Shown piece by piece: positions 1,330-33,562 of a DNA stretch of 64,000 nucleotides (its first letter is position 1; each line of letters starts with the position of its first letter). Source of the stretch: Urechis unicinctus (taxonomy: Eukaryota; Annelida; Polychaeta; Xenopneusta; Urechidae); the NCBI GenBank assembly GCA_034190875.2, contig CM067357.1:20537462-20601461 (forward strand), in the 5' to 3' direction. The notes below the pieces were generated by a model. The model had not been told where the DNA came from. It searched no databases and saw only the letters and a program-made list of their open reading frames with translations. Both the position numbers and the translations under genes were made by a program.

Positions 1330-2342
1330 AAGTTTCAAGGTCACTATCTTGTACTAAAGGAGGGAGGAGATTTGTTATGGCACAAACAATTGTCATAATA
1401 TTGTCAAGCTGGCTAAACCGACTCAGGGAGAAAACAGCCTGCAACACTCTAAAGTCCTTTATTCGCTCTATTGCTCTCAACGTGAATCCTGAGGCTGGAC
1501 ACTTTTCTGTGGCGTTCGACTTCACATTGGCTAAGCTGTGTCTTTCCTTTGGTGAATGGGGGTATATTGAGCATGACACATCTGGGGGCCAGAAGATCAG
1601 CAATGTCAAAACCCTGGTCTGCCATAATCTGGTCGTGTGGGTCGAACTGATCCAAGAACTCTGCTCCTGTAAACATTTTGAAAAGCAAATGATATAAACG
1701 GGTATATGTACATAGTATACAGGCAAGCAACAAGTTAAGTTACACAAGACCAATGATACTCCCTTACCTGAGTTTTTTACAAGTGCTTGTCTGAAGCCCA
1801 ACCACCCCACATCTTACTGAGTGCGAAAACCCGAGAAATGATGCAATAAAACTAAGGTACTACAGGTGAAATTTAAACAATATTTCTTCATTTTGTATGG
1901 GACTCTTACCAGGGGGTAACTGCTTTGACAACTTGAGCCTAGATTCATATTCACGGCGAGAGGGCAATCTGAACCTGGAAGTATAACATACAAATTAAGA
2001 TTCTCAAACAGAAGTAGATTTTAGCTGTATGACATAGCTTTACTGATGTATTACAATAAATCAAACAGTCACCTTGTCTGTATCTTCGATGGGTAACCCA
2101 TGTTAAGGCATGGTGTTGGATGTTGAGGTGTTGGCATACCTTCTATAAAATGCTTGGAACAAACAACAGTGTGTGGTTTGATAGCTAAGTTCTTCCTGCT
2201 AACTGCCTTGACCCATGCCTTGCTCTGGGTAGCGAATCTGCCCCGGGAATTTGAAGAATTTAGGTTTGGAGCCATCCTGGTTTGTAGTTCTTGAGCTTGT
2301 GATGCAATCGACAATGCAGCAGTGATTCACCATTGTGATATA
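1330..2342 (-). pseudogene. THAP-domain + DDE_Tnp_4 (Harbinger/ISL2EU-type) transposase, broken
   Basis: Reading leftward, a THAP DNA-binding domain begins at about 2339 with MVNHCCIVDC, continues to KPKFFKFPG, and after a one-base change in a GGGG run near 2245 continues as WVKAVSRKNLAIKP and VVCSKHFIEGMP. This is the THAP C-x4-C ... C-x2-H zinc pattern. A small exon (about 1909-1972) encodes FRLPSRREYESRLKL. The DDE part follows: GWASDKH, a frame break near 1775, VKNSG, a 75-bp intron with GTAAGG donor and TTTACAG acceptor, then DQIMADQGFDI, LNIPPFTKGKTQLS, LRIHVE, a two-base loss in an AG run near 1464, and AIERIKDFRVLQ to ITNLLPPLVQD. These are the DDE_Tnp_4 (HARBI1-like) catalytic blocks. 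The stretch normally lying between THAP and the SDKH block is missing, so this is an internally deleted, frameshifted copy. Confidence 0.8.
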
Positions 2343-6791: not shown

Positions 6792-8030
6792 AACATGATA
6801 TGGTAGCGGATTCCGCTACAAATACCCCAAAACCCATGGTTCTTAGCTACTGCAATGAACCAGCTTCCAAAAATGGATGGTTCTGAGGTGGTGGCACCCC
6901 GACTACCTCAGAACCATGCATGGTTCCATGCATGAGGGTTCCAGTAGTTAAGAACCATGGGAAAACATGATATGGTAGCGGATTCCGCTACAAATACCCC
7001 AAAACCCATGGTTCTTAGCTACTGCAATGAACCAGCTTCCAAACATGCATGGTTCTGAGGTGGTGGCACCCCGACTACCTCAGAACCATGCATGGTTCCA
7101 TGCATGAGGGTTCCAGTAGTTAAGAACCATGGGAAAACATGATATGGTAGCGGATTCCGCTACAAATACCCCAACCCCCATGGTTCTTAGCTACTGCAAT
7201 GAACCAGCTTCCAAACATGCATGGTTCTGAGGTGGTGGCACCCCGACTACCTCAGAACCATGCATGGTTCCATGCATGAGGGTTCCAGTAGTTAAGAACC
7301 ATGGGAAAACATGATATGGTAGCGGATTCCGCTACAAATACCCCAAAACCCATGGTTCTTAGCTACTGCAATGAACCAGCTTCCAAACATGCATGGTTCT
7401 GAGGTGGTGGCACCCCGACTACCTCAGAACCATGCATGGTTCCATGCATGAGGGTTCCAGTAGTTAAGAACCATGGGAAAACATGATATGGTAGCGGATT
7501 CCGCTACAAATACCCAAAAACCCATGGTTCTTAGCTACTGCAATGAACCAGCTTCCAAACATGCATGGTTCTGAGGTGGTGGCACCCCGACTACCTCAGA
7601 ACCATGCATGGTTCCATGCATGAGGGTTCCAGTAGTTAAGAACCATGGGAAAACATGATATGGTAGCGGATTCCGCTACAAATACCCCAAAAACCCATGG
7701 TTCTTAGCTACTGCAATGAACCAGCTTCCAAACATGCATGGTTCTGAGGTGGTGGCACCCCGACTACCTCAGAACCATGCATGGTTCCATGCATGAGGGT
7801 TCCAGTAGTTAAGAACCATGGGAAAACATGATATGGTAGCGGATTCCGCTACAAATACCCCAAAACCCATGGTTCTTAGCTACTGCAATGAACCAGCTTC
7901 CAAACATGCATGGTTCTGAGGTGGTGGCACCCCGACTACCTCAGAACCATGCATGGTTCCATGCATGAGGGTTCCAGTAGTTAAGAACCATGGGAAAACA
8001 TGATATGGTAGCGGTTTCCTCTACAAATAC
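6792..8030. repeat. 172-bp satellite array, seven nearly identical units, each a nested hairpin
   Basis: AACATGATATGGTAGCGG recurs at 6792, 6964, 7136, 7308, 7480, 7652, 7825 and 7997: period 172 (once 173), seven full units and a truncated, diverged eighth. Each unit contains three self-complementary blocks. The first is GTAGCGGATTCCGCTAC. The second is an outer stem, CCCATGGTTCTTAGCTACTG against CAGTAGTTAAGAACCATGGG. The third is an inner stem, ATGCATGGTTCTGAGG against CCTCAGAACCATGCAT, closing on a GGTGGCACC tip. A unit could therefore fold almost end to end. Differences between units are single bases (for example the first unit's AAATGGATGG), so homogenisation is recent. No open frame is conserved. 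Confidence 0.97.
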
Positions 8031-16195: not shown

Positions 16196-16229
16196 TGAAG
16201 TTGGCGCAAAATAGTAGAACCATATAAGA
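16196..16229 (+). repeat. putative left terminal inverted repeat (34 bp)
   Basis: Contains GGCGCAAAATAGTAGAACC. Over 34 bases it differs from the reverse complement of 33480-33513 at two positions. Similarity stops abruptly on both sides. Confidence 0.6.
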
Positions 16230-16234
16230 CGAGA

Positions 16235-16244
16235 TCTCGCGAGA
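16235..16244. promoter_or_regulatory. TCTCGCGAGA palindrome
   Basis: An exact copy of the TCTCGCGAGA element known from many animal core promoters, five bases inside the putative left terminal repeat. A ten-base match has limited weight; no gene start is visible beside it. Confidence 0.25.
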
Positions 16245-16770
16245 AGAAAAAGAAGCAAATACCTTATTGCAGATATTACTATGTTTTCGAGATAGCTTGA
16301 CATTTTCGTCTGCTACGATATGCTTTATTTTAATTTGGCAATCTTCGTTTTATACTGGTAATTGCGGCCAAATGTCGAATATGACTCGAGTGCTGTGAGA
16401 AATGATAACAAGTGGATCTACAATCACCCGCGTTGTTGTTATCATTCGTTATTAAACTATATATGGTGTGTAAACTTTAGTTTTGAGCGATATTGAAAGG
16501 TTTTTTGTGCAATCAAGTCCATAATAGGATCGGTAAGTTAGAAATCAAAGTTAGAAATCAATGAATTCGAGCACATAATTTTATAAAATAAAATATGATT
16601 AAAACCAGTTATGAACACATGCTAAATGATATAAACTTGTTGTCTCTCTTGAATGACATTGCATTTTCGCCGAATAGGGATATTGCTTTCCCATATGTCA
16701 TGCGTTAATAATCCTAGTGTGAGAGCCTGTCATGTAATGTAAGAATCTGTAGAACCACCATCCCCTAACA

Positions 16771-16792
16771 CCCCCCCCCCAAAAAAAAAAAA
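16771..16792. repeat. C10-A12 homopolymer pair
   Basis: Ten C followed directly by twelve A, just outside the left satellite arm. A likely spot for length errors in the assembly. Confidence 0.9.
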
Positions 16793-16904
16793 CCCCAGTG
16801 ATAATAGCAATGAACAATCCCATACATTAAAAACATATCCCAGCAACAAAATATTGTACATTGTTCCACAATCAAGTTTTTCTATGTCCAGAGCAATTTA
16901 GCTG

Positions 16905-19900
16905 ACTCCAAAGTAATTATTCTCTGGTGCTATGCACTGATAAGGCAACTCAAAACTGTATGTAGTATACCCCAATCAGCCAGTTAACTATCTAGAAAAG
17001 ATTATTGGAAGCCATGTGTATTGAGCTCACATTGGGTCCAAAATCTCACTTTGCACCCGCTAAAGCAAAAAATATGGGAGGGAACCCCGTAAGATAACTT
17101 TTATCTGGTGCTATACACCCACTAGGCTACCCAAAACTGTATCCAGTATACCCCCATCGGCGTTATAACTATCTAGAACCATTTAGTGGAAGTAATGTGT
17201 ATTGAGTTAACATAGGGTCCAAAATCTCACTTTCAACACCCTGTAACACAAAAACTGGGAGGGAAACCCCCAAAGTAACTATGGTCTGCTACTATACACC
17301 CACTAGGCTACCCAAAACTGTATCCAGTATACCCCCATCGGCGTTATAACTATCTAGAACCATTTAGTGGAAGCTATGTATATTGAGTTAACATAGGGTC
17401 CAAAATCTCACTTTCAACACCCTGTAACACAAAAACTGGGAGGGAAACCCCCAAAGTAACTATGGTCTGCTACTATACACCTACTAGGCTACTCAAAACT
17501 GCATGCAGTATACCCCCATCGGCGTTATAACTATCTAGAACCATTTAGTGGAAGTAATGTGTATTGAGGTCCCGCAAAGCCAAAAATCTCACTTTCAACC
17601 CCCTGTAACACAAAAACTGGGAGGGAAACCCCCAAAGTAACTATAGTCTGCTACTATACACCCACTAGGCTACCCAAAACTGTATGCAGTATACCCCCAT
17701 CGGCGTTATAACTATCTAGAACCATTTAGTGGAAGTAATGTGTATTGAGTTAACATAGGGTCCAAAATCTCACTTTCAACCCCCTGTAACACAAAAACTG
17801 GGAGGGAAACCCCCAAAGTAACTATGGTCTGCTACTATACACCCACTAGGCTACCCAAAACTGTATCCAGTATACCCCCATCGGCGTTATAACTATCTAG
17901 AACCATTTAGTGGAAGCTAGATACCATTTAGTGGCCAAAAATCTCACTTTGAATGTAACACAAAAACTGGGAGGGAAACCCCCAAAGGTCTCCCTATACT
18001 CCAACTAGGCTACCCAAAAAAATCTCATAACTATTCAAACCATTTAGTGAAGCTATGTGTATTGAGTAACACAAAATCTCAAAACTGGGAGGGAAACCCC
18101 CAAAGTAACTATGGTCTGCTACTATACACCTACTAGGCTACCCAAAAACTGTATGCAGTATACCCCCATCGGCGTTATAACTATCTAGAACCATTTAGTG
18201 GGTAATGTGTATTGAGGTCCCGCAAAGCCAAAAATCTCACTTTCAACCCCCTGTAACACAAAAACTGGGAGGGAAACCCCCAAAGTAACTATAGTCTGCT
18301 ACTATACACCCACTAGGCTACCCAAAACTGTATCAGTATACCCCCATCGGTGTTATAATGTTTTAACTATCTAGAACCATTTAGTGGAAGTAATGTGTAT
18401 TGAGTTAACATAGGGTCCAAAATCTCACTTTCAACCCCCTGTAACACAAAAACTGGGAGGGAACCCCCAAAGTAACTATGGTCTGCTACTATACACCCAC
18501 TAGGCTACCCAAAACTGTATCCAGTATACCCCCATCGGCGTTATAACTATCTAGAACCATTTAGTGGAAGCTATGTGTATTGAGGTCCCGCAAAGCCAAA
18601 AATCTCACTTTGAACCCCTGTAACACAAAAACTGGGAGGGAAACCCCCAAAGTAACTATAGTCTGCTACTATACACCAACTAGGCTACCCAAAACTGTAT
18701 CCAGTATACCCCCATCGGCGTTATAACTATCTAGAACCATTTAGTGGAAGCTATGCGTATTGAGTTAACATAGGGTCCAAAAATCTCACTTTCAACACCC
18801 CTGTAACACAAAAACTGGGAGGGAAACCCCCAAAGTAACTATGGTCTGTTACTATACTCCCACTAGGCTACCCAAAACTGTATCCAGTATACCCCCATCG
18901 GCGTTATAACTATCTAGAACCATTTAGTGGAAGCTATGTATATTTAGGTTGCGAAGGTCCCGCAAAAAAAGAAACCCCCAAAGTAAAATCTCACTTTCAA
19001 CCCCCTGTAACACAAAAACTGGGAGGGAAACCCCCCCAAAGTAACTATATGGTCTGCCACTATACACCAACTAGGCTACCCAAAACTGTATGCAGTATAC
19101 CCCCATCGGCGTTATAACTATCTAGAACCATTTAGTGGAAGTAATGTGTATTGAGGTCCCGCAAAGCCAAAATCTCACTTTCAACCCCCTGTAACACAAA
19201 AACTGTGAGGGAAACCCCCAAAGTAACTATGGTCTGCTACTATACACCCACTAGGCTACCCAAAACTGTATGCAGTATACCCCCATCGGCGTTATAACTA
19301 TCTAGAACCATTTAGTGGAAGTGCTATGTAGGTATATGATCGGGTCCCTAGCAAAGTCCCCAAAAAAATCTCACTTTCAACCCCCTGTAACACAAAAACT
19401 GGGAGGGAAACCCCCAAAGTAACTATAGTTTGCGACTATACACCTACTAGGCTACCCAAAACTGCATGCTCTATACCCCCATCGGCGTTATAACTATCTA
19501 GAACTATTTAGTGGAAGTAATGTGTATTGAGTTAACATAGGGTCCAAAATCTCACTTTCAACCCCCTGTAACACAAAAACTGGGAGGGAAACCCCCAAAG
19601 TAACTATGGTCTGCTACTATACACCCACTAGGCTACCCAAAACTGTATCCAGTATACCCCCATCGGCGTTATAACTATCTAGAACCATTTAGTGGAAGCT
19701 ATGTATATTCAGGTCCCGCAAAGCCAAAAATCTCACTTTCAACACCCTGTAACACAAAAACTGGGAGGGAAACCCCCAAAGTAACTATGGTCTGCTACTA
19801 TACACCCACTAGGCTACCCAAAACTGTATGCAGTATACCCCCATCGGCGTTATAACTATCTAGAACCATTTAGTGGAAGTAATGTGTATTGAGGTCCCGC

Positions 19901-20072
19901 AAAGCCAAAAATCTCACTTTCAACCCCCTGTAACACAAAAACTGGGAGGGAAACCCCCAAAGTAACTATAGTCTGCTATTATACACCCACTAGGCTACTC
20001 AAAACTGTATCCAGTATACCCCCATCGGCGTTATAACTATCTAGTGGAAGCTATGTGTATTGAGTTAAACCT
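16905..20072 (+). repeat. left satellite arm, about 17 copies of a ~181-bp monomer
   Basis: Each unit carries AACACAAAAACTGGGAGGG, CCCAAAGTAACTAT, CTAGGCTACCCAAAACTG, CCCCCATCGGCGTTATAACT and ATCTAGAACCATTTAGTGG. Two variants of the joining segment alternate: GTTAACATAGGGTCC and GGTCCCGCAAAGCC. The outermost unit and a half (16905-17100) is clearly the most diverged. Units near 17925-18080 and 18950-18990 are truncated or scrambled, either real rearrangement or collapse in assembly. The inner end (20072) lies 77 bp from the gene's poly(A) signal. Confidence 0.97.
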
Positions 20073-20148
20073 CTAAACCTTAGACCATGCATTTCATAAC
20101 AAATAAATGACAGAAGCACAGCTATTAAGGTAGAACATGGACAGTAAC

Positions 20149-20154
20149 TTTATT
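20149..20154 (-). terminator. AATAAA polyadenylation signal of the transposon gene
   Basis: AATAAA on the minus strand, 227 bases past the Ulp1-domain stop codon and just before the left arm. It is the only well-placed signal between the stop and the array. Confidence 0.5.
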
Positions 20155-20380
20155 GATTTCAAACCGTTAACGCATTATCATACATGGAATGGGATTTAAT
20201 TGGCTTATTTGCAAAATATATACAATATGTGTATATACAACAATATTTAATGATATGTAAACCATATACTCTACTCACAATTTTTAATCACATGTTTGTT
20301 CAATCAGAGTAGTAAATGTGCAATGAAAAAGATATCCCTGGCAAATATTGCAAATTCCTTATCGATTATGAATATGTCAA

Positions 20381-20935
20381 TTAAACTTCAATTCTCGTTT
20401 TATTAATTGTTAGTCTAGAAAGCAGGGGTTCAAATGAAAATACCTTATTAAAGACTAGAGCTTTTGCCATGGTGCAGACATATGGCCCACAGCTATGACC
20501 ATCCTTTTGTTTTAGGAAATTATTAGTTTGACAATAAGCAACATGAGACCAATATTTAGATTCCATTTTTTTACCGGTTGCACATATATACTCAAAATGA
20601 AGGTACTTAGCTATTTGAGCCACAACTGAATCATGTGTGCCACAGTAGGAGTCACAAGTAAAAATGGCGTTTCTCTTGGTGTTCACAACAAACAGTATCC
20701 AATGGAGGTCGGAATTGCATGGTATCAAAACCCATTCATAATCAAACCATTTAATTGAACACTGACGAGTTATAAAATTTTGCAATGGTTTTTTTTGTTA
20801 CAATCAAACAAACGTTGGAAAATCCACCCAGAATCCACCACATGAACCAATTTTGAATTTATACTATGATTCTTAATAAGAAACATGTAAGTATCTATAA
20901 CAGCACTGTTGAACCACCCATCCCTATTGCAACTA
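20381..20935 (-). CDS. transposon gene: Ulp1/SENP-type SUMO protease (C48) domain
   Basis: Cleaves SUMO-like modifiers if active. It opens with DGWFNSAVIDTYMFLI and VHVVDSGWIFQRLF, the substrate-facing start of C48 proteases. The catalytic set follows: YEWVLIPCNSDLHWILFVV (His 20702-20704), IFTCDSYCGTHDSV (Asp 20651-20653), then KQKDGHSCGPYVC (Gln six residues before the Cys at 20489-20491). All four residues are in place and the spacing is normal for a domain of about 185 residues. A one-base change at the T8 run 20789-20796 splits it; adding one base rejoins the frame. The protein stops at 20381. ULP domains occur in plant Kaonashi MULEs, and adenovirus-type relatives in Polintons, so a role in transposition is precedented. 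Confidence 0.8.
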
Positions 20936-23900
20936 CTAATTTTGGATAGTGTTTCTGTACTGATGAAGTGGCCACCAAGAGAGATGTTATTTAACTGTTT
21001 ATAAGATGGCTTAGACTTGGCCGAAACTAAACTAATTTTTTCAATGGATGTTGTCTCATATCTTGCTTCCCTCAAGGTCGGTATATTAGTTTGTTTAACA
21101 ACATTCTTGTTCATAAAAATTATTGCTGTGTTTGTAACTAATAGTAATTCTTTCAAAAAAGCTGAAGAAAGTTGACGTGAAACCCCCTGGTTGTCCATTT
21201 GAAAAATGTTGCCCTTTAAGAAACTTACATTCATCAATGAGTCATTAAGTTCAAAAAAAAAAAAGCAACCACATGGTACACGACAACCCTGCCTGGGTAA
21301 ACTAAATTAATTATATGTGAACTATCAAATGAGACATCACATGCAAAATCTAATATTTTGTTTAAATTGGAATTGAGTCTCACTACCAATGTACTTGGTA
21401 GTGATGAAACAACTACAGGGTGTGTATTTTGGTCTGATATACAATTACAAGAATTTACTCTGTGTTTTTTGCTGATGAAGGCTGACAGGCTTTTTAGCAA
21501 ATCGTGAGCAGTTAAATTAATGACATCTATGAATGGCACAGAACAGGAAGTTACATTTTTTATACACCCTGGGCAACTACTGGTAGAATGGAAAATGGTT
21601 GAAAATGCAGTTGCCAAGCCCCCGGAAACATTTACTTGAGTAAGTGTTTTAACCATAGCACAGTAGAAAGCAATAGCACTAGTTGTAGTTGCGACCCCAC
21701 TAACACTTTTACAGATTAACTCTATGTTTGGCTTGTGTAATTTGTTGGTGAGAAGTAAGCAGTTTAAGAATATGTTTCGCCCTATATAGCCTAGAATCTG
21801 ACTTATTTGACAACTCATTCTTTAGATCTAAAAGGCCTTTGGCATTGGATAGAGCGTGGACTATTGGCTCTATCCATAGTAACTTTGAATCGAAATGTTC
21901 CTTTTTTTCATACACTAAAACATAGGCATTTTTTTCCCACAAGTTCCTCGGTTGTCATGAGCTGGGTTGATATAATATTGTCGTTACAAAGGGTCACATA
22001 TGTTTGATTGCTAATTGATGTCAATACACTTGCTGTATAGTGGCCAGAATCTGGTGAATCACCCCAATGATCAATATAACTAAGAAGTTGGTAAGATTGT
22101 TTTGAACTATCTGATACCCCAATATTAATGACCTCATTTAAATATACCTCATTGCGGTTTTTCTCTGCACATTGACTAGTTTGATTGAACACAAACCTGT
22201 TTAAAATTATGACCAGTGTAGGTGGTAAACTGGCAAAGGATACAGTCTCTGTGCTGGCACTTGTTGAGCATTTGGAGCAGGTCTGTTCCATAGGACGCGG
22301 TTCTTGGTGTTCATTTAGTAGGTCCTAATAACAAAACCAAATATCACATTATTATCTTGCTACAAAATGATGAGAGGTTATGCTAGGGCAATTACAGATG
22401 ACTTCTTTGTTTGATAAGGTATGTACTCAGCCAAGTAGCTTCGACAAACTAACTAACCTGAATAGACCTGTAATAACCTGCTGGAGACTCCTGGGGTACT
22501 GTCAGGACCAAGCAGGTGTCACTTGCTTGTTTGAAGGTAACTGTCCTGCACCTCTGACATTCCCGTTTGTAGTCAATCTGTTACCGAGCAAACATCCCTG
22601 TAAAAAGTAGTCTACAGCCAACGAAATACAGCAATGGGTAAACTTATTACGTTTATCGGCAATATTTACCATAATGAGGTATTTGAGCCGTGTCATCTCT
22701 CTGCTCATGTACTCCATGAAGAACTCCTGGGCATCTACCTGTATTTGATAAGGAAATTTCTCAGAACCCAAGTAATGAAGGGGCCTTTTGGTAGTTTTGA
22801 GTGATGATATTGGTAATGTGCTTACTGGATAATTCAAGCAAAAAAACATCATCCTCACTTTTGTCAGCGATTGGCTTCAGCATATTATATAATAAAGTAT
22901 CCGGTACTGGTTCAGGGGAATTGACCAGAATATGATGCCATATACCTAGCAGGGGTCTCATCTCCTGTTGCACAGAAAAATTGTCTTGCATATATAAAAC
23001 TAAGTCAGATTGAGAAAATGCCTGAATTGTTGAATTTAACCAACATGAATTTCCAATATTATTTATGCCACAGAAAGATACGTTAATGGCGTCCGAATGT
23101 AATCTTGTATTATTACTTTTTATGGTGTCCTTATTGGGTATCACGGGTAGCTTTATATTGGGGGCTTTTTGGTAAGTTCCAGACTGCTCGGGCAATTTAT
23201 CAAATTTCCTTTTCTTGTTATACGTTTCGGACACTGTTTCGGTTAACTTAGAGGATTCTTTTGGTAATCTTTTTTTGCGGGGACTCTTAATTAGACTTAA
23301 TGCCAGATTCTGTTGCAGAGCACAAAATTCCCTTTCCAATATTGCAGATAATTCGTCGCATCTTAATCCTTCTCTGCCCGCCAAAGTTATATTTTTAAGG
23401 TAGTCAAATCTTTCTTCCTGTGCACTTGTAGTTTTAGATGGGTCTAAGGCTGATCTAAATCTGGTATTGTTAGTACCATTAGCTAAAATTGAGAGTGGTG
23501 TGGTAAAAGACTTATACTTACTAGAATGGCGGCTCGGATCACCAAGCAACAAATTTGACCATAGTGGGAATGTAGGCAACCAAAGTTTCAACAATAGCTT
23601 GGCAAAAGTAACGGAGTAGCGACTATTTTTCGTCGTTGATGAAACATCACAAGAAGCCTCAACAATTTTATCGGCTTCTTCTTCTATTCCTGATGCCCAG
23701 ATATGGAAAGGGGAGGATGTATTGAATAACAACTTTTCTTCTTCACTGAAATAATTTGGTTTTTCTAAATCCTCAACAGTCATTTCATTTGTCTCCTGGT
23801 TAATGCTGTTTGATTCAGTCAGATCAGATTTATCAAAAAGCGATCGCAAACTGGTGTCAAAACTATTTATTTTCTTTATCAATCTACTGCTGTGTTTTTG

Positions 23901-26679
23901 AATAACTTTATTGGTAAATTTGGATTTTAAAATGACTAGCCCATCAAGAAAAACCTCTCCTGCCTCAGCTAGAGAATTACAATTAACTAACAGGCCCATC
24001 AAAAACATACCAAACTTATGCTTGTCCTGGTTTTTATGGAAGTTAATTTTTTTTAGATGCCGGGATGTACGTTTCATGTGATGACTTAGGCATATATGAA
24101 CTACTGTTGCACTTAACATTCGCTCATTAGCACCCCCGCTGACTATTTCCCAACCTCGGTTCAAAAAGTCCAAAACACTCTCCTTACAAAAGACATCTAA
24201 AACAGCGACTATCATGGCCATAGCAGCATCTACATTAAACAAAGAATCGGAGTGGTTTGAGGTTTGTTATGACCAAAAAGCCGTTTCTCGTCATCTTTTA
24301 AGTGAACTAGGAAATCTCTTATACGAGTTGCTCGTTGATCTGATGAAAGCATCCCTGCAACTGGTACAGTAGATTCCTTCCTAATAGGGTTTGCAAAGGA
24401 CACTTCATAGTAAAGAAATTTCTTACCGTCTGCTAAAGGTTTAGCTATACCTCCCGTTGCATCTAAGAAAACTACATCCCTCTTGCATAACTCATGCCAT
24501 ATTCTCAAACCCGTCTTAGAATAAAAATGAACATAGAAAGGATCAAGACCAATATTTTGTATGAATCCTTCTACCTTTGACTTTTTACTTCCACTAGATT
24601 TCTCTATCATATGCTTTTTCATTCTTATGATACTAATAAATAAATCCTTATCATGTCTATCCTCTTGGTTACTCTCGCTCCTTATTTTCCTTAACACTGA
24701 CTTGGTAAGCCCCATACCACTGAAATTTCCTGCCAACAGTTCTTCCCCCACTTTTTTGTCGCTGAGTAGTATTGTAAAAACTTGAAGCATTAACACAGTG
24801 CAATATTTTTTTCTTCACTTCCCTTTCTGTGCCTGATATAGGTCTAGCATGTTTCTCATAAACGCTATGTTTAAGGGTTCCCTTGTAATACACATGGACT
24901 ACTTTTTGGTCAAATGCTTTGAGAGTGGCCCTCATGGTACAATCTTCAAAAGCACATTTATATGTTTTAGTATGCAAAAGAGGACTCTTACGATTTCTTC
25001 TAGTCGCTGAACTTAATCTTAACCCTCTTTCAAATGCAAAAACACAATATTTGTTAGATTTTGCAATACCTGCAGTCATAACATGCTGCCAGCTGTTCCT
25101 TCTAATATAGGAATTGCCGTTGGTATTTTGCACTATTTCATTGTACATTTCCTCTCCTAAAGCAAAGGTTGCATGCGGCTCAATTAGTTTTGTAAAGAAT
25201 TTACCACTTACTTTGGTTCCAAGACATTGAGAAAGACATTCATCTGTCAAAATCATTGGATTTATGAGACCTCTAACAGCTTGAACACCTTCCTTACTTT
25301 GTGGAACGTCACTTTCACGGCCAATATTATCCTCTCCCTGCTTACCTTTGATAGTTTGAACTTTTAGGGATGCCTGGTCAACACTGGTGGAACTTCTGTC
25401 ACCCTCACGGGGCCAAACATATGAACACAGGGATGGTTGACTATCATCTTGATGAACTTGGATATTGTTCACCTCGCTACTATTGACAGTGTGACCACTC
25501 ATGGATGACTGGTCAACAATATCCTCACCCTCACTACGCCTTACATCGGTACACAAGGAAGGGGGATTATCCTCTGTAGGAATATTGTTCGTGTTCTCCT
25601 TTGAGTTACAAGACTCATTGAAGTTACTCATTGGGAAGTTCTGAACGACATGTTCAACTTTGCCGTCACCCGAAGGGGGATTATCCTCTGTAGGAATATT
25701 GTTCGTGTTCTCCTTTGAGTTACAAGACTCATTGAAGTTACTCATTGGGAAGTTCTGAACGACATGTTCAACTTTGCCGTCACCCGAAGGGTGATTATCT
25801 TCTTTAGGAATATGGTTCTCCTTTGAGTTACAAGACTCATTGAAGTTACTCATTGGGAAGTTCTGAACGACATGTTCAACTTTGCCGTCACCCGAAGGGG
25901 GATTATCCTCTGTAGGAATATTGTTCGTGTTCTCCTTTGAGTTACAAGACTCATTGAAGTTACTCATTGGGAAGTTCTGAACGACATGTTCAACTTTGCC
26001 GTCACCCGAAGGGGGATTATCCTCTGTAGGAATATTGTTCGTGTTCTCCTTTGAGTTACAAGACTCATTGAAGTTACTCATTGGGAAGTTCTGAACGACA
26101 TGTTCAACTTTGCCGTCACCCGAAGGGTGATTATCTTCTTTAGGAAGGGTTATTGTGGTCTAGTATTGATAATGGAGAAATACCAAAAATACAAAGCCAA
26201 AGTCGTTTTACCATGTCATTACGGTGTCTGTTCCTCAACCACACATTTATAAGTTGCTGCCGAGTCTTTCTGGTGTTGGGCCAGTTGAGATGCTGTGCAA
26301 CGAGACCCCAGACGCTTCCATCTGGCTTGTAAGATGTCAAGTTCATCTTACCATTCTTATTCTGTACAGAGTGCAAAGCGCGCATTATTTCTTTTACTGG
26401 CCTTCCTCTAGTGAACTTTTTCCCATAACGGACATGTTCTGGCTTCCCTCCACCTGTACACTGTATTCATATTATATGTTTAAAAATACTGAAGACTGCG
26501 AAAAAGCGAGCACTAAATACGACATACTACTTTGTCGTGGTAAGGAAACGCACAAGTTGGTATATATATTGCGAAGTCTCCAAACGCGAGTTCAACGCTG
26601 TAAAAATACACAAATTTGTTGTCCAGATTTAGAATCAAAATAAATTTATTTCATAGTTCGGTTGAATCAACACTCACCA
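20381..26679 (-). CDS. giant fusion protein: zinc-finger MULE-like transposase + USP + degenerate USP + Ulp1 protease
   Basis: Reading leftward, one frame can be followed from the start region to the stop at 20381, through three predicted introns (26461-26677 or similar, 26160-26211, 22578-22669 and 22325-22457 being the candidates, the first least certain) and seven single-base frame changes. It would encode about 1,900 residues. Domain order: N-terminal RYGKKFTRGRPVKE region; 38-residue repeats; CAFEDC...HSVYEKH zinc finger; transposase D in FLDATGG, D in VDAAMAM, C-x2-H; USP Cys box NIGNSCWLNS to His box DSGHYTAS; a second USP-like unit without catalytic residues; Ulp1 with LHW, CDSY, Q and CGPYVC. 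Plant Kaonashi MULEs also carry ULP domains, but an added USP is not something I know from described elements. The frame changes sit mainly at A or T runs, so sequence error is as likely as decay. Single-gene status is inference; the reading could also be two or three genes. Confidence 0.65.
20936..21898 (-). CDS. transposon gene: second, degenerate USP-like domain
   Basis: This part repeats the second half of a USP without its catalytic residues. SSCPGCIKN stands where the first zinc half-site would be, NSCNC where the second would, then SLPSTLVVRLNSNLNK (compare LPPTLVIILNRF in the first USP), a hydrophobic strand YHVVAFFF, FQMDNQGVSRQLSS (compare LCNDNIISTQLMT) and AIIFMNKN (compare YVLVYEKK). 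No Cys box and no GHY is present. It may be a pseudo-protease scaffold arising from duplication of the first USP. Frame changes fall between 21709 and 21818 and at the A12 run 21253-21264. The relation to USP is by pattern alignment only and needs a profile search. Confidence 0.45.
21899..23064 (-). CDS. transposon gene: ubiquitin-specific protease (USP/C19) domain
   Basis: Cleaves ubiquitin from proteins if active. Visible in order: Cys box GINNIGNSCWLNSTIQAF (nucleophile codon 23043-23045); QVDAQEFFMEYMSREMTRL, the usual QDAxEF block; YKRECQRC and later CSKC, the paired zinc-ribbon half-sites; LPPTLVIILNRFVF; YQLLSYIDHWGDSPDSGHYT with the catalytic His (22040-22042); LCNDNIIS; and YVLVYEKK, the usual closing strand. 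Two introns fit (22578-22669 and 22325-22457), each joining phase 0 ends. One-base changes at A7 22840-22846 and T7 21929-21935 break the frame; removing one base in each restores the expected sequence. At about 380 residues it has the family's normal length, so it is a complete domain. Confidence 0.75.
22325..22457 (-). other. predicted 133-nt intron in the USP domain
   Basis: Donor CAG|GTTAGT and acceptor TTATTAG|GAC. The join gives VPQESPAGYYRSIQ then DLLNEHQEPRPM and CSKC, in phase, matching the usual USP spacing between half-sites. Confidence 0.65.
22578..22669 (-). other. predicted 92-nt intron in the USP domain
   Basis: Donor GTAAAT after TRLKYLIM and acceptor GGTAACAG before IDYKREC, both phase 0, which removes an in-frame TAA. 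A stronger polypyrimidine acceptor (TTTTTACAG, near 22598) exists but would put the zinc half-site out of frame or leave the TAA in. Confidence 0.45.
23065..24796 (-). CDS. transposon gene: MULE-like DDE transposase core
   Basis: LTKSVLRKIRSE opens the core. The first acidic block is DVVFLDATGGIAKPL (Asp at 24461-24463) followed by FLYYEVSFANP and VPVAGMLSSDQ, the beta-strand pattern of MULE transposases. After a one-base frame change at about 24237-24243 comes NVDAAMAMIVAVLDVF (Asp at 24228-24230) and then HICLSHHMKR, a C-x2-H typical of MULE between D2 and E. A later block, LWLPTFPLWSNLLLGD and TSAQEERFDYLK (23412-23417 the Glu codons), may hold the third acidic residue. The remainder (SPRKKRLPKESSKL and on) is a basic linker into the USP. 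Assignment rests on motif order; which Glu is catalytic is inference. Confidence 0.65.
24776..25560 (-). CDS. transposon gene: linker and WRKY/FLYWCH-like zinc finger
   Basis: After the repeats come about 100 disordered residues, then GLINPMILTDECLSQCLG, GKFFTKLIEPHATFALG, YIRRNSWQHVMTAG and a C-x4-C ... H-x5-H motif: YKCAFEDCTMRATLK, VVHVYYKGTLKHSVYEKH. MULE transposases typically carry a FLYWCH or WRKY-GCM1 zinc finger of this spacing ahead of the catalytic core, and the basic stretch RPISGTEREVKKKI that follows also fits. The frame shifts by one base between 24752 and 24780, at either a five-base or a six-base A/T run, into the catalytic part. Confidence 0.6.
25559..26150 (-). repeat. five tandem 114-bp units coding a 38-residue repeat
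   Basis: The unit encodes MSNFNESCNSKENTNNIP, then TEDNPPSGDGKVEHVVQNFP. Units start near 25559, 25672, 25786, 25891 and 26005, with a partial sixth to 26150. The third unit lacks nine bases (three residues), keeping frame, which suggests the repeat is translated. Acidic, polar and Pro/Ser-rich, it is probably a disordered linker between the N-terminal region and the zinc finger. Confidence 0.95.
26160..26211 (-). other. predicted 52-nt intron
   Basis: Donor GTAAAACG and acceptor AATACTAG. Removing exactly these 52 bases joins RNDM (phase 0) to TTITLPKEDN, which runs straight into the 38-residue repeats. Without splicing both frames meet stops here, and the acceptor AG is itself part of the upstream TAG stop. 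Confidence 0.6.
26212..26460 (-). CDS. transposon gene, N-terminal exon
   Basis: Open for 83 codons from a plausible acceptor (AATACAG, 26461-26467) to a GTAAAA donor at 26211. It encodes GKPEHVRYGKKFTRGRP, then SYKPDGSVWGLVAQHLNW and RKTRQQLINVWLRNRHRN. The basic start and the Trp/Leu-spaced helical block look like a small DNA-binding or helix-turn-helix unit, as found ahead of transposase zinc fingers. I do not recognise the family. The true start codon is unclear: the first ATG in frame within this exon is at 26385, while an upstream candidate exon ends ATG|GTGAGT at 26678. Confidence 0.5.
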
Positions 26680-26734
26680 TCAAATCTTCTTTCGCTGAAT
26701 AATTAGATTGGCCTCCTCCTCGGAATTTCTTGAC

Positions 26735-27205
26735 CCTACCCTGACCTGCACCTTACCACGGGACTGCACCTTACCACGGGACTGCACCTTACCACGGGAC
26801 TGCACCCCACCACGGGACTGCACCTTGCCACGGGAATGCACCCCACCATGGGACTGCACCCCACCACGGGACTGCACCCCACCACGGGACTGCACCCCAC
26901 CACGGGACTGCACCCCACCGCGGGACTGCACCCCACCGCGGGACTGCACCCCAGCAGGGGACTGCACCCCACCACGGGACCGTACCCCAGCAGGGGACTG
27001 CACACCAGCAGGGCCAACAGGGGAGTGAACCCCAGCAGGGGACTGCACCCCACCACGGGACCGTACCCCGGCAGTGGACTGCACCCTAGTAGGGGACTGC
27101 ACCCCAGCAGAGGACTGCACCCCAGCAGGGGACTGCACACAAGCAGGGGACTGATCCCCAGCAGGGGTTCGTACCCCACCACGGGACTCAACCCCATCAC
27201 GGGGT
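26735..27205 (-). repeat. 18-bp minisatellite at the 5' end of the transposon gene
   Basis: About 25 copies of GGGACTGCACCCCACCAC and close variants. Because the unit is a multiple of three and nearly stop-free, several frames on both strands stay open (minus-strand GGVQSR repeats; plus-strand DCTPPR repeats). The minus-strand frame 26680-27225 stops two bases before a strong GTGAGT donor at 26677, so the array may be the 5' leader or first exon of the gene. GC-rich against an AT-rich background. Confidence 0.9.
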
Positions 27206-27254
27206 ACCCCTGAACTAGCACCCAATTCCGAGCGACCGTCACTGATCGAGCACT

Positions 27255-30200
27255 CACTTTGGGGGTTTCCCTCTCAGTTTTTGTGTTACAGGGGGTTCAA
27301 AGTGAGTTTTTTGGCTTTGCGGGACCTCAATACACATTACTTCCACTAAATGGTTCTAGATAGTTATAACGCCGATGGGGGTATACTGGATACAGTTTAG
27401 GGTAGCCTAGTGGGTGTATAGTAGCAGACCATAGTTACTTTGGGGGTTTCCCTCCCAGTTTTTGTGTTACAGGGGGTTGAAAGTGAGATTTTGGACCCTA
27501 TGTTAACTCAATACACATAGCTTCCACTAAATGGTTCTAGATAGTTATAACGCCGATGGGGGTATACTGGATACAGTTTTGGGTAGCCTAGTTGGTGTAT
27601 AGTGGCAGACCATAGTTACTTTGGGGGTTTCCCTCCCAGTTTTTGTGTTACAGGGGGTTCAAAGTGAGATTTTTGACTTCGCGGGACCTAAATATACATA
27701 GCTTCCACTAAATGGTTCTAGATAGTTATAACGCCGATGGGGGTATACTGGATACAGTTTTGGGTAGCCTAGTGGGAGTATAGTAACAGACCATAGTTAC
27801 TTTGGGGGTTTCCCTCCCAGTTTTTGTGTTACAGGGTGTTGAAAGTGAGATTTTGGACCCTATGTTAACTCAATACACATAGCTTCCACTAAATGGTTCT
27901 AGATAGTTATAACGCCGATGGGGGTATACTGGATACAGTTTTGGGTAGCCTAGTGGGTGTATAGTAGCAGACTATAGTTACTTTGGGGGTTTCCCTCTCA
28001 GTTTTTGTGTTACAGGGGGTTCAAAGTGAGTTTTTTGGCTTTGCGGGACCTGAATATACATAGCTTCCACTAAATGGTTCTAGATAGTTATAACGCCGAT
28101 GGGGGTATACTGGATACAGTTTTGGGTAGCCTAGTGGGAGTATAGTAGCAGACCATAGTTACTTTGGGGGTTTCCCTCCCAGTTTTTGTGTTACAGGGGG
28201 TTGAAAGTGAGATTTTTGGCTTTGCGGGACCTGAATATACATAGCTTCCACTAAATGGTTCTAGATAGTTATAACGCCGATGGGGGTATACTGGATACAG
28301 TTTTGGGTAGCCTAGTGGGTGTATAGTAGCAGACTATAGTTACTTTGGGGGTTTCCCTCCCAGTTTTTGTGTTACAGGGGGTTCAAAGTGAGATTTTTGG
28401 CTTTGCGGGACCTGAATATACATAGCTTCCACTAAATGGTTCTAGATAGTTATAACGCCGATGGGGGTATACTGGATACAGTTTTGGGTAGCCTAGTTGG
28501 GTGTATAGTGGCAGACCATAGTTACTTTGGGGGTTTCCCTCCCAGTTTTTTGTGTTACAGGGGTTCAAAGTGAGATTTTTGACTTTGCGGGACCTAACTC
28601 ATATACATAGCTTCCACTAAATGGTTCTAGATAGTTATAACGCCGATGGGGGTATACTGGATACAGTTTTGGGTAGCCTAGTGGGTGTATAGTCGCAAAC
28701 CATAGTTACTTTGGGGGTTTCCCTCCCAGTTTTTGTGTTACAGGGGGTTGAAAGTGAGATTTTTGGCTTTGCGGGACCCTCAATATACATAGCTTCCACT
28801 AAATGGTTCTAGATAGTTATAACGCCGATGGGGGTATACTGGATACAGTTTTGGGTAGCCTAGTGGGTGTATAGTAGCAGACCATAGTTACTTTGGGGGT
28901 TTCCCTCCCAGTTTTTGTGTTACAGGGGGTTGAAAGTGAGATTTTGGACCCTATGCGGGAACTCAATATACATAGCTTCCACTAAATGGTTCTAGATAGT
29001 TATAACGCCGATGGGGGTATACTGGATACAGTTTTGGGTAGCCTAGTGGGTGTATAGTAGCAGACCATAGTTATTTTGGGGGTTTCCCTCCCAGTTTTTT
29101 GTGTTACAGGGGGTTGAAAGTGAGATTTTTGGCTTTGCGGGACCTCAATACACATACTTCCACTAAATGGTTCTAGATAGTTATAACGCCGATGGGGGTA
29201 TACTGGATACAGTTTTGGGTAGCCTAGTGGGTGTATAGTAGCAGACCATAGTTACTTTGGGGGTTTCCCTCCCAGTTTTTGTGTTACACAGGGTGTTGAA
29301 AGTGAGATTTTGGACCCTGCGGGAACTCAATACACATAGCTTCCACTAAATGGTTCTAGATAGTTATAACGCCGATGGGGGTATACTGGATACAGTTTTG
29401 GGTAGCCTAGTGGGTGTATAGTAGCAGACTATAGTTACTTGGGGGTTTCCCTCCCAGTTTTTTGTGTTACAGGGGGTTCAAAGTGAGATTTTTTTGCTTT
29501 TGCGGGACCTCAATATACATAGCTTCCACTAAATGGTTCTAGATAGTTATAACGCCGATGGGGGTATACTGGATACAGTTTTGGGTAGCCTAGTGGGTGT
29601 ATAGTAGCAGACCATAGTTACTTTGGGGGTTTCCCTCCCAGTTTTTGTGTTACAGGGGGTTCAAAGTGAGATTTTTTGGCTTTGCGGGACCTTAACTCAA
29701 TACATAGCTTCCACTAAATGGTTCTAGATAGTTATAACGCCGATGGGGGTATACTGGATACAGTTTTGGGTAGCCTAGTGGGGGTGTATAGTAGCAGACC
29801 ATAGTTACTTTGGGGTTTCCCTCCCAGTTTTTTGTGTTACAGGGGGTTGAAAGTGAGATTTTGGCTTTGCGGGACCTCAATATACATAGCTTCCACTAAA
29901 TGGTTTCTAGATAGTTATAACGCCGATGGGGGTATACTGGATACAGTTTTGGGTAGCCTAGTGGGTGTATAGTGGCAGACTATAGTTACTTTGGGGGTTT
30001 CCCTCCCAGTTTTTGTGGGGTTCAAAGTGAGATTTTTGGCTTTGGGGACCTGAATATACATAGCTTCCACTAAATGGTTCTAGATAGTTATAACGCCGAT
30101 GGGGGTATATACTGGATACAGTTTTGGGTAGCCTAGTGGGGTATAGTAGCAGACCATAGTTACTTTTGGGGGTTTCCCTCCCAGTTTTTTGTGTTACAGG

Positions 30201-33200
30201 GGTTCAAAGTGAGATTTTTGGCTTTGCGGGACTGAATATACATAGCTTCACTAAATGGTTCTAGATAGTTATAACGCCGATGGGGGTATACTGGATACAG
30301 TTTTGGGTAGCCTAGTTGGTGTGTATAGTAGCAGACTATAGTTACTTTGGGGGTTTCCCTCCCAGTTTTTGTGTTTACAGGGGTTCAAAGTGAGATTTTT
30401 GGCTTTGCGGGACCTCAATATACATAGCTTCCACTAAATGGTTCTAGATAGTTATAACGCCGATGGGGGTATACTGGATACAGTTTTGGGTAGCCTAGTT
30501 GGTGTATAGTAGCAGACCATAGTTACTTTTGGGGTTTCCCTCCAGTTTTTGTGTTACAGGGGGTTGAAAGTGAGATTTTTGACTTTGCGGGACTCAATAC
30601 ACATAGCTTCCACTAAATGGTTCTAGATAGTTATAACGCCGATGGGGGTATACTGGATACAGTTTTGGGTAGCCTAGTGGGTGTATAGTAGCAGACTATA
30701 GTTACTTTGGGGGTTTCCCTCCCAGTTTTTGTGTTACAGGGGGTTGAAAGTGAGATTTTTGGCTTGCGGGACCTCAATACACATTACTTCCACTAAATGG
30801 TTCTAGATAGTTTATAACGCCGATGGGGGTATACTGGATACAGTTTTGGGTAGCCTAGTGGGTGTATAGTAGCAGACCATAGTTACTTTGGGGGTTTCCC
30901 TCCCAGTTTTTTGTGTACAGGGGGTGAAAGTGAGATTTTGCGGGACCCTATGTTAACTCAATACACATAGCTTCCACTAAATGGTTCTAGATAGTTATAA
31001 CGCCGATGGGGGTATACTGGATACAGTTTTGGGTAGCCTAGTGGGTGTATAGTAGCAGACCATAGTTACTTTGGGGGTTTCCCTCCCAGTTTTTGTGTTA
31101 CAGGGGTTGAAAGTGAGATTTTGGACCCTATTGCGGGACTCAATACACATAGCTACTTCCACTAAATGGTTCTAGATAGTTATAACGCCGATGGGGGTAT
31201 ACTGGATACAGTTTTGGGTAGCCTAGTGGGTGTATAGTAGCAGACCATAGTTACTTTGGGGGTTTCCCTCCCAGTTTTTTGTGTTACAGGGGTTCAAAGT
31301 GAGAGATTTTTTGACTTTGCGGGACCTAAATACACATAGCTTCCACTAAATGGTTCTAGATAGTTATAACGCCGATGGGGGGTATACTGGATACAGTTTT
31401 TGGGTAGCCTAGTGGGTATATAGTAGCAGACCATAGTTACTTTGGGGGTTCCCCTCCCAGTTTTTGTGTTACAGCTTGTTCAAAGTGAGATTTTTGACTT
31501 TGCGGGACCTCAATACACATAGCTTCCACTAAATGGTTCTAGATAGTTATAACGCCGATGGGGGTATACTGGATACAGTTTTGGGTAGCCTGATGGGTTT
31601 ATAGAAGCTGATCATAGTTACTTTGGGGGTTTCCCTCCCAGTTTTTGTGTTACAGGGGGTTCAAAGTGAGATTTTTGGCTTTGCGGGACCTCAATATACA
31701 TAGCTTCCACTAAATGGTTCTAGATAGTTATAACGCCGATGGGGGTATACTGGATACAGTTTTGGGTAGCCTAGTGGGTGTATAGTGCAGACCATAGTTA
31801 CTTTGGGGGTTTCCCTCCCAGTTTTTGTGTTACAGGGGGTTCAAAGTGAGATTTTTGACTTTGCGGGACCTAAATATACATAGCTTCCACTAAATGGTTC
31901 TAGATAGTTATAACGCCGATGGGGGTATACTGGATACAGTTTTGGGTAGCCTAGTTGGGTGTATAGTGGCAGACTATAGTTACTTTGGGGGTTTCCCTCC
32001 CAGTTTTTGTGTTACAGGGGGTTCAAAGTGAGATTTTTGGCTTTGCGGGACCTGAATATACATAGCTTCCACTAAATGGTTCTAGATAGTTATAACGCCG
32101 ATGGGGGTATACTGGATACAGTTTTGGGTAGCCTAGTGGGTGTATAGTAGCAGACCATAGTTACTTTTGGGGGTTTCCCTCCCAGTTTTTTGTGTTACAG
32201 GGGTTCAAAGTGAGATTTTTGGCTTTGCGGGACCTAAATATACATAGCTTCCACTAAATGGTTCTAGATAGTTATAACGCCGATGGGGGTATACTGGATA
32301 CAGTTTTGGGTAGCCTAGTGGGTGTATAGTAGCAGACCATAGTTACTTTTGGGGGTTTCCCTCCCAGTTTTTGTGTTTACAGCGGGTTCAAAGTGAGATT
32401 TTTGGCTTTGCGGGACCTGAATATACATAGCTTCCACTAAATGGTTCTAGATAGTTATAACGCCGATGGGGGTATACTGGATACAGTTTTGGGTAGCCTA
32501 GTTGGTGCCGATGGCAGACTATAGTTACTTTGGGGATTCCCTCCCAGTTTTTGGGTAGCCTAGTGGGTGTATAGTACAGACTTATAGTTACTTTGGGGGG
32601 GTTTCCCTCCCAGTTTTTGTGTTACAGGGTGTTGAAAGTGAGTTTTTTGTGACCCTATGTTAACTCAATACAATACATTACTTCCACTAAATGGTTCTAG
32701 ATAGTTATAACGCCGATGGGGGTATACTGGATACAGTTTTGGGTAGCCTAGTGGGTGTATAGTAGCAGACCATAGTTACTTTGGGGGTTTCCCTCCCAGT
32801 TTTTGTGTTACAGGGTGTTGAAAGTGAGATTTTTGGACTTTATGTTAACTAAATACACATTACTTCCACTAAATGGTTCTAGATAGTTATAACGCCGATG
32901 GGGGTATACTGGATACAGTTTTGGGTAGCCTAGTGGGTGTATAGTAGCAGACCATAGTTACTTTGGGGGTTTCCCTCCCAGTTTTTGTGTTACAGGGGGT
33001 TGAAAGTGAGATTTTTGGCTTTATGGGAACTCAATACACATTACTTCCACTAAATGGTTCTAGATAGTTATAACGCCGATGGGGATATACTGGATACAGT
33101 TTTGGGTAGCCTAGTGGGTGTATAGTGGCTGACCATAGTTACTTTGGGGGTTTCCCTCCCAGTTATTGTGTTTCCTAGGGCCAAATATGTGATTTGGGAC

Positions 33201-33235
33201 CCAATGTTAACTCAATATTCATAGTATGTATATTG
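27255..33235 (-). repeat. right satellite arm, about 32 copies of the ~181-bp monomer, inverted relative to the left arm
   Basis: The same monomer as 16905-20072 on the opposite strand: CTAGATAGTTATAACGCCGA recurs at 27356, 27537, 27718, 27899, 28080 and so on at 181-bp steps to 33063. Both joining variants of the left arm occur here too (GGACCCTATGTTAAC and GGCTTTGCGGGACC). A scrambled short unit lies near 32500-32590. The outermost unit (33050-33235) is the most diverged, mirroring the left arm. Confidence 0.98.
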
Positions 33236-33479
33236 ATTTACAAAAGTTCACTTGAAGTGGATCATGGTTCCCGATTATGTTTGATTATAGTTGTTTATTT
33301 ATGATTGAAAGGAAATAAACTATTTCTACTTGTCTATAGTCGTTCATTCTGTTTAAAGATGCTTTGAATCCTTATATTCCGTTGCAGCCGATCAATCAGC
33401 TGATCTGTGTTTACATGCTAAAATTCGGCGTAAGCTATTTGCCGCTCATCTGTGCCAGGAATAGGTTGTCCCGTCGGGC

Positions 33480-33513
33480 TCTTATTTGGTTCTACTATTT
33501 TGCGCCAGCTTCA
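33480..33513 (-). repeat. putative right terminal inverted repeat (34 bp)
   Basis: Reverse complement of 16196-16229 with two mismatches. Confidence 0.6.
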
Positions 33514-33518
33514 CACTG

Positions 33519-33562
33519 GTGGTTGTAAATCGTGGTTCATACGCGGAATCTGCTACGCACTA
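33519..33562 (-). repeat. 44-bp dispersed motif, copy 2
   Basis: Read on the minus strand it matches 6569-6612 at 40 of 44 positions (TAGTGCGTAGC.GATTCCGC ... TACAACCAC). It sits five bases outside the putative right terminal repeat. Confidence 0.75.

What the first reader, a model, noticed from the sequence alone, without database searches (positions are those of the whole stretch)
20381..26679. A transposase fused to a deubiquitinase, a pseudo-USP and a SUMO protease
Seen: MULE-like D/D and C-x2-H blocks, a USP Cys box and His box, and a complete Ulp1 His-Asp-Gln-Cys set follow one another on the minus strand, joined in one direction with in-phase introns. Known: plant Kaonashi MULEs carry ULP domains and Polintons carry adenovirus-type proteases. 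Inference: a mobile element carrying two different ubiquitin-family deconjugating activities may counter host ubiquitin/SUMO control, stabilise its own transposase, or process a polyprotein. I know of no described element with this combination.
Basis: partly seen in the sequence, partly recalled or inferred. Interest (0 to 1): 0.92.

Follow-up and report, generated by a model that had tools for sequence, protein, structure and literature searches.

The report
Transposon carrying ubiquitin and SUMO proteases
A young, multi-copy jumping gene in what is probably an animal genome encodes one long protein that joins a DNA-cutting transposase to one enzyme domain that should remove ubiquitin and another that should remove SUMO, tags that cells use to destroy proteins and to silence such elements.

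Summary
Core observation confirmed. On the minus strand at about 20.38-26.47 kb lies one gene with DDE motifs, a WRKY-like DNA-binding domain, a full USP (UCH E 5.8e-25 on the read-through) and an Ulp1 protease (C48 E 7e-17), catalytic residues present. It lies in a DNA transposon, window 16,196-33,520: 34-bp terminal inverted repeats, perfect 9-bp duplications at 4 of 5 testable sites, inverted arms of 181-bp units. The 1.19-Gb, probably animal, genome holds 193 end matches (control 0). Five long copies differ by 0.04-0.19% substitutions: a young family. In copy C3a one 646-aa frame holds USP His half and Ulp1; in the window one 501-aa frame joins transposase and USP Cys box. Many frame breaks look like homopolymer-biased indels, not introns. 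C3a also has a PHD finger that the window lost. Two diverged relatives keep the USP-X-Ulp1 order; against one (42-58% identity) all five segments show purifying selection; against the other, decayed, one interval includes neutrality. 'Pseudo-USP' is unproven; no Pfam transposase model matches. Anatomy is nearest Rehavkus. Best reading: a transposase that strips ubiquitin and SUMO in cis; activity untested. No printed USP+Ulp1 element found in nine searches.

The parts
16196..33520 (.). whole transposon copy, about 17.3 kb; its left end lacks the outermost terminal bases and no target-site duplication was found
   Evidence: homology to other copies stops at these positions; ends read
33487..33520 (-). 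right terminal inverted repeat, 34 bp, intact
   Evidence: 193 matches genome-wide at up to 2 mismatches, backwards control 0
16196..16222 (+). left terminal inverted repeat, incomplete in this copy
16223..16907 (.). unique subterminal block Y, changes sides with X in copies C2a and C7a
33173..33486 (.). unique subterminal block X
16908..20044 (+). left arm: tandem array of about 181-bp units
27256..33172 (-). right arm: inverted array of the same units, up to 97% complementary to the left arm
26746..27203 (.). 18-bp minisatellite between the right arm and the gene
20381..26466 (-). gene: one multidomain transposase protein; start codon not resolved; broken in this assembled copy by frameshifts and a deletion near 26145
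26212..26466 (-). first coding exon (proposed donor after 26212)
   Evidence: frame fit in copy C3a, position; not checked with RNA
25558..26146 (-). 114-bp (38-aa) tandem repeats in the protein; the PHD-finger stretch of other copies is missing just upstream, near 26145
24830..25110 (-). DNA-binding domain with predicted WRKY-type fold (coordinates approximate)
23403..24560 (-). transposase core: D codon 24463-24461, D codon 24230-24228, C-x2-H (C 24092-24090), E about 23417-23415
   Evidence: motifs conserved in relatives; positions
22761..24266 (-). single open frame of 501 aa joining the second D, C-x2-H and E of the transposase to the USP Cys box
21900..23085 (-). USP domain: Cys 23045-23043, His 22042-22040, Asn-Asp 21985-21980
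   Evidence: UCH E 5.8e-25 over 1-254/254 on the read-through; E 4.4e-14 on one ORF; positions
22578..22669 (-). proposed intron, 92 nt, phase 0
   Evidence: GT-AG and frame; not checked with RNA
22325..22457 (-). proposed intron, 133 nt, phase 0
   Evidence: GT-AG and frame; the downstream frame starts at the same residue in 6 of the 9 sets (C2a, C3a, C5a, C9b, C3b, C7a)
   Evidence: 48% and 67% aa identity to two relatives, pN/pS 0.48 and 0.59; hhalign to USP E 0.057
20381..20980 (-). Ulp1-type protease domain: His 20704-20702, Asp 20653-20651, Gln 20509-20507, Cys 20491-20489
   Evidence: Peptidase_C48 E 7e-17, SENP1/2 alignment, positions (Gln counted from the Cys codon)

Best explanation
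It is a young cut-and-paste DNA transposon of the MULE/Rehavkus kind that encodes one long protein: PHD finger, WRKY-type DNA-binding domain, DDE transposase, USP, a conserved middle block, Ulp1 protease. Shown: marks of mobility, copy number, domain order, catalytic residues, and long-term constraint against one diverged relative. Inferred: the transposase binds the element's ends, cuts and reinserts with a 9-bp stagger, while the tethered Ulp1 and USP domains remove SUMO and then ubiquitin in cis, from the transposase itself, from repair factors at the break, or from silencing complexes on the element's own chromatin. Together they would undo the two-step SUMO-then-ubiquitin (STUbL) route that marks nuclear complexes for destruction. 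The PHD finger would steer the complex to chosen chromatin.
For: TIRs and perfect 9-bp duplications at 4 of 5 sites with both ends; 193 end matches, control 0; five copies 0.04-0.19% diverged; USP, Ulp1 and PHD profile hits; single frames joining domains; same USP-X-Ulp1 order in two diverged relatives and pN/pS 0.33-0.51 in five of five segments against C12r, upper 95% limits 0.45-0.66; WRKY-type fold in two relatives. SUMO promotes Argonaute-directed silencing in C. elegans (PMC8131101, abstract).
Against: No enzyme activity, expression or localisation was tested. No Pfam transposase model matches, and the catalytic core of both structure models is low-confidence. Every one of the five long copies, as assembled, has frame breaks, attributed mainly to assembly error without reads to prove it. 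Against the second relative, C8r, pN/pS is 0.59-0.84 and the Ulp1 interval (0.56-1.38) includes 1; C8r lacks the stretch with the Ulp1 His in the alignment. The target of the proteases, and action in cis, are guesses.
Confidence: 0.5

Rival explanations
1. The proteases process the element's own polyprotein: USP or Ulp1 cleaves the transposase chain at internal sites, as adenovirus-type proteases are thought to do in other elements (recalled).
For: One very long coding stretch with a C-terminal cysteine protease; a 38-aa repeat stretch and linkers between domains.
Against: USP and Ulp1/SENP families act on ubiquitin and SUMO; the solved relatives found are deconjugating enzymes. No cleavage motif was looked for.
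Confidence: 0.15
2. Host USP and SENP exons were captured as passengers, as plant MULEs capture gene pieces, and have no role in transposition.
For: MULEs tend to acquire host gene fragments (abstract of PMC6446971 as listed).
Against: The same order in relatives, one with near-saturated synonymous change and pN/pS 0.33-0.51 in five of five segments; in C12r the USP Cys and His boxes and the Ulp1 His, Gln and Cys are kept; the parts share frames with the transposase.
Confidence: 0.07
3. Only the Ulp1 part matters, as in MULEs with Ulp1; the USP is a binding module without catalysis.
For: Ulp1 domains recur in unrelated transposons (PMC2836005, passages).
Against: USP Cys, His and Asn/Asp are present here; the Cys and His boxes are conserved in C12r; the USP Cys half has the lowest pN/pS, 0.33, though the intervals of the segments overlap.
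Confidence: 0.15

Closest known systems
Rehavkus DNA transposons (Repbase; Rehavkus-1_TC of Tribolium)
   Same: PHD finger, 9-bp duplication, one ORF, minisatellite (PMC6446971, section 6 read in full; passages); tandem 164-bp units in the inverted termini of a 9.5-kb element (PMC10218199, passages) against 181-bp units here.
   Different: No USP or Ulp1 is listed for Rehavkus in what I read; I held no Rehavkus protein, so descent is untested. Here the terminal repeat proper is 34 bp and the arrays are subterminal.
Phantom and Tm1 MULEs
   Same: FLYWCH-type DNA-binding domain, foldback-like repeated termini, 8-10 bp duplications (PMC6446971 section 6; PMC3169594, passages). That FLYWCH has a WRKY-GCM1 fold is recalled.
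   Different: Tm1 transposase is 496 aa; the terms Ulp, ubiquitin, C48 and protease do not occur in PMC3169594; no Pfam FLYWCH or MULE hit here.
Ginger1 transposons
   Same: C-terminal Ulp1 or OTU protease, once with PHD, fused to the transposase (PMC2836005, passages).
   Different: Integrase-type core; of the families in the table each has OTU or Ulp1 and none both (one is marked NA), and none a USP.
ULP-carrying MULEs (Kaonashi of plants, MuDR of hydra and lancelet)
   Different: No USP mentioned in what I saw.
Helentrons with VTD/OTU deubiquitinase domains
   Same: A mobile element that carries its own deubiquitinase (PMC9741609, passages).
   Different: Rolling-circle element, different protease families, no SUMO protease in the passages seen.
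transposase_11-Peptidase C19 protein of Trichomonas vaginalis
   Same: A USP-type domain fused to a transposase (one sentence in PMC2836005).
   Different: Another transposase family, no Ulp1 mentioned.

Membership tests
MULE superfamily (wide sense) | 8-11 bp target-site duplication and long terminal repeats | tested here: met
   perfect 9 bp at 4 of 5 sites, fifth 7 of 9; 34-bp TIR plus inverted arrays
MULE superfamily (wide sense) | match to the MULE transposase profile | tested here: not met
   no Pfam hit for the transposase region at E<=10, nor at E<=1 for a transposase model in outside relatives P0002-P0004; the own-genome search with PF10551 did not complete
MULE superfamily (wide sense) | DDE triad with C-x2-H between second D and E, RNase H fold | tested here: inconclusive
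   motifs conserved in relatives; models mostly under 50 pLDDT there
MULE superfamily (wide sense) | WRKY/FLYWCH-type DNA-binding domain | tested here: inconclusive
Rehavkus | PHD finger in the protein | tested here: met
   Pfam PHD E 1.7e-7, above cut-off, in copy C3a, the one copy scanned; absent from the window copy by deletion
Rehavkus | tandem repeats or minisatellite in the terminal regions, 9-bp duplication | tested here: met
Rehavkus | transposase sequence groups with known Rehavkus proteins | not testable with these tools
   no Repbase sequence held
Phantom | FLYWCH plus MULE domains by profile | tested here: not met
   no such Pfam hits at E<=10
USP (peptidase C19) | full UCH profile with Cys, His and Asn/Asp | tested here: met
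   residues read
USP (peptidase C19) | deubiquitinase activity | not testable with these tools
   none
Ulp1/SENP (peptidase C48) | profile match with His-Asp-Gln-Cys | tested here: met
Ulp1/SENP (peptidase C48) | SUMO protease activity | not testable with these tools
   none
USP-derived pseudoenzyme (middle block) | detectable descent from a USP domain | tested here: inconclusive
   no UCH hit at E<=10, no PDB sequence match at E<=10, hhalign E 0.057 over 21 residues

The most novel reading that the evidence does not exclude
A transposase that is also a two-enzyme eraser: Ulp1 removes SUMO and USP removes ubiquitin from whatever its DNA-binding and PHD domains bring it to, so that each copy disarms SUMO-dependent, small-RNA-guided silencing and STUbL destruction at its own ends. 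The conserved middle block, without a recognisable catalytic set, would hold the ubiquitin or SUMO substrate between the two enzymes.
Probability: 0.25. Interest if true: 0.85.

Novelty: new variant of a known kind. Interest (0 to 1): 0.62.

Why it matters
Proteases of the ubiquitin and SUMO families turn up in several unrelated transposons, yet in what I read no role in transposition has been shown; PMC2836005 proposes one (passages). Here both kinds sit in one transposase and look constrained, and the family is young enough that it may still move. That makes the question directly testable with one protein and two point mutations.

Tried and rejected
Rejected: random open frames (profile hits; many copies). 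Rejected: in-phase introns at every frame change; indels differ between copies, 17-26 gap runs per copy in the five-copy alignment against 2-10 substitutions per pair, and 43 of 55 one-base gaps sit in homopolymers of 4 or more, which hold 10.5% of bases. Rejected: host gene beside a repeat; homology to other copies stops at the element ends.

Led nowhere: protein search with 22761-24266, none at E<=0.001 among the 7996 best candidates (capped list); with the 646-aa USP-Ulp1 frame, only a crayfish SENP1-like protein, 23% identity, among 7996 candidates (capped list); viral-contig scans, no relative in 3 scans; PHROGs, best E 0.014; Rfam, none; structure models of two relatives, mean pLDDT 38 and 42, usable only for the DNA-binding domain. 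P0003, an outside relative with 45% identity in the transposase, ends in a different Cys-containing block (LNTCTIDN); I thought it kin to the middle block, but hhalign and BLAST gave nothing. Relative C6 (L037) could not be tested for USP and Ulp1 because other coding sequence interrupts it after the transposase. The own-genome search with the MULE profile never ran. One tblastn piece in a wrong frame across the Cys box was dropped from the pN/pS count.
Full report
What was checked. The finding claims a transposase, a USP, a pseudo-USP and a Ulp1 protease joined on the minus strand at 20381-26679. Pfam finds UCH at E 4.4e-14 on 21908-22324, UCH at 1.9e-4 (below the curated cut-off) on the ORF 22761-24266, and Peptidase_C48 at 3e-15 on 20381-20797. 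Read through with X at the joins, the whole UCH profile matches (1-254 of 254, E 5.8e-25) and C48 reaches 7e-17. The solved relatives by sequence are USP35 alone for the USP His half (E 3.2e-4) and 13 chains for the protease, SENP1 and SENP2 first. Cys, His and Asn/Asp of the USP and His, Asp, Gln, Cys of the Ulp1 domain are present.

One protein or several. In the window a single 501-aa frame carries the second D, the C-x2-H and the E of the transposase and then the USP Cys box. In copy C3a a single 646-aa frame runs from the USP His half through the middle block to the stop after the Ulp1 domain, and this one frame hits UCH at 1.7e-15 and C48 at 2.4e-15, both above cut-off. C11a has 565 aa from within the USP His half to just before the Ulp1 Cys; in C17a a 695-aa frame runs from the end of the DNA-binding domain through the core to the USP Cys box; in C3a an 821-aa frame runs from before the PHD finger to the C-x2-H. 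So many frame changes of the window copy are not introns. Still, each of the five long copies has breaks somewhere. The five, window included, differ by 2-10 substitutions in about 5,150 bases (0.04-0.19%), yet carry 17-26 gap runs each in the alignment, and 43 of 55 one-base gaps lie in homopolymers of four or more, which hold 10.5% of the bases. That is the pattern of long-read assembly error, though real mutations cannot be told apart without reads. Two GT-AG introns in the USP (22669-22578 and 22457-22325) and one after the first exon fit the frames; no RNA was available.

The mobile element. The window lies in a 1.19-Gb genome, contig C16; that it is an animal is my inference from its size and from the animal sources of distant relatives. 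The USP piece has 25 matches at E<=0.001 there, a lower bound by the tool's own words, ten of them, besides the window's own, at 96-98% identity. Of ten fetched sets, eight run past the Ulp1 end and six hold transposase core, USP and Ulp1 without a large gap; C7a lacks about 0.3 kb that includes the USP Cys box, C9a starts after the transposase, C10 (two copies) and C3b stop before the Ulp1 domain. In nine of the ten sets, and in the window, an array of 181-bp units stands on each side of the gene in inverted orientation; in the tenth (C10) only one arm lies in the fetched range. Homology to other copies stops at window 16196 and about 33520. There the copies share a 34-bp terminal inverted repeat. 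Of five sites with both repeats, four have a perfect 9-bp duplication and the fifth matches at 7 of 9. The repeat has 91 + 102 matches in the genome at up to two mismatches and none when read backwards; in the part of the list that is shown at least nine inverted pairs lie 1.6-3.8 kb apart, which suggests short non-autonomous forms. The window copy itself lost the outermost left bases and no duplication was found at it, and it lacks about 0.5 kb near 26145 that five other copies (C17a, C2a, C3a, C5a, C9b) carry and that encodes a PHD finger in C3a, the one scanned (Pfam PHD E 1.7e-7). The outer unique blocks X and Y change sides in C2a and C7a, so the internal part flips between the inverted arrays.

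Constraint. Two diverged relatives in the same genome were read. C12r (L030) keeps transposase, USP Cys box, QIDAQEFF, His box, middle block and Ulp1 in this order; what reads by eye like a Gypsy retroelement lies inside it, and it has stops. C8r (L029) keeps USP His box, middle block and Ulp1. Against C12r, pN/pS is 0.36 for the transposase part, 0.33 and 0.47 for the two USP halves, 0.48 for the middle block and 0.51 for Ulp1 (42-58% amino-acid identity), with every 95% bootstrap limit below 1; near-saturated synonymous change and decay of the copy both push these ratios up. Against C8r, a copy with stops, three segments give 0.59-0.84 and the Ulp1 interval (0.56-1.38) includes 1. Catalytic residues in relatives: C12r keeps USP Cys and His and Ulp1 His, Gln and Cys, but the residue after the Ulp1 His differs and the stretch with the Asp is not aligned; C8r keeps the USP His box, has His for the Asn of the USP, and lacks the stretch with the Ulp1 His.

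Transposase loci without USP. By my reading of the capped lists, the query P0003 hits 21 loci in the genome; 15 have a USP hit within 6.5 kb. Of the other six, four lie beside a family end repeat (C5, C11, C12 and C1) and look like internally deleted or partial copies, and two are diverged fragments; one of these, C6 (L037), is interrupted after the transposase. So no intact relative without the proteases was found here, but none was ruled out, and P0003 outside the genome may be one.

Mechanism. Shown: structure of the element, domain order, catalytic residues, constraint against C12r, youth. Inferred: cut-and-paste by the DDE core with 9-bp stagger; removal of SUMO and ubiquitin in cis. SUMO promotes Argonaute-directed silencing in the worm (PMC8131101, outline and abstract), and a paper on piRNA-guided heterochromatin in the fly also holds the term SUMO (PMC7272611, listing only). 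The STUbL idea, that SUMO recruits ubiquitin ligases and an element with both proteases would undo both steps, is my inference from general knowledge.

Known relatives. Rehavkus shares PHD finger, 9-bp duplication and repeats in the termini (PMC6446971 section 6; PMC10218199 passages), so I place this beside Rehavkus by anatomy, without a sequence test. No group in the table of PMC6446971 lists a USP or Ulp1; one lists an ovarian tumour gene. A 2026 survey of arthropod MULEs has no occurrence of Ulp, ubiquitin or PHD in its main text (PMC13359780, term search). Ginger1, Ulp1-carrying Mutators, Helentrons with VTD or OTU, and a transposase_11-C19 protein are precedents for single protease kinds. 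The USP+Ulp1 pair in one protein was not found in nine searches of the held library on the subject, which lacks most subscription journals and Repbase.

Verdict. A real, young transposon with a domain combination that I did not find described: new variant of a known kind. The arrangement is established well (about 0.9); the mechanism much less (0.4), and the pseudo-USP label remains open.

Noticed in passing
window 6792-8030: Tandem array of a 172-bp unit, 7.2 copies, 98% matches, unrelated in unit length to the transposon arms.
   Followed up: no
window 1328-1813, minus strand: Weak DDE_Tnp_4 match (E 8.1e-4, below cut-off), perhaps a remnant of another transposon.
   Followed up: no
window 16196-16908 and 33173-33520; copies C2a, C7a: The internal segment of the transposon is inverted relative to its outer ends in some copies, as expected from recombination between the inverted arrays.
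   Followed up: partly
L021-L022 (C10): Two gene copies 4.9 kb apart in the same orientation, both ending before the Ulp1 domain.
   Followed up: no
L037: A 62-75% identical transposase copy is interrupted by frames that read by eye like a Polinton-type DNA polymerase; described only.
   Followed up: no
P0003: Outside relative of the transposase, 1091 aa, ends in a Cys-containing block (LNTCTIDN) with CxxC motifs and no Pfam hit; possibly another protease type in place of USP and Ulp1.
   Followed up: partly
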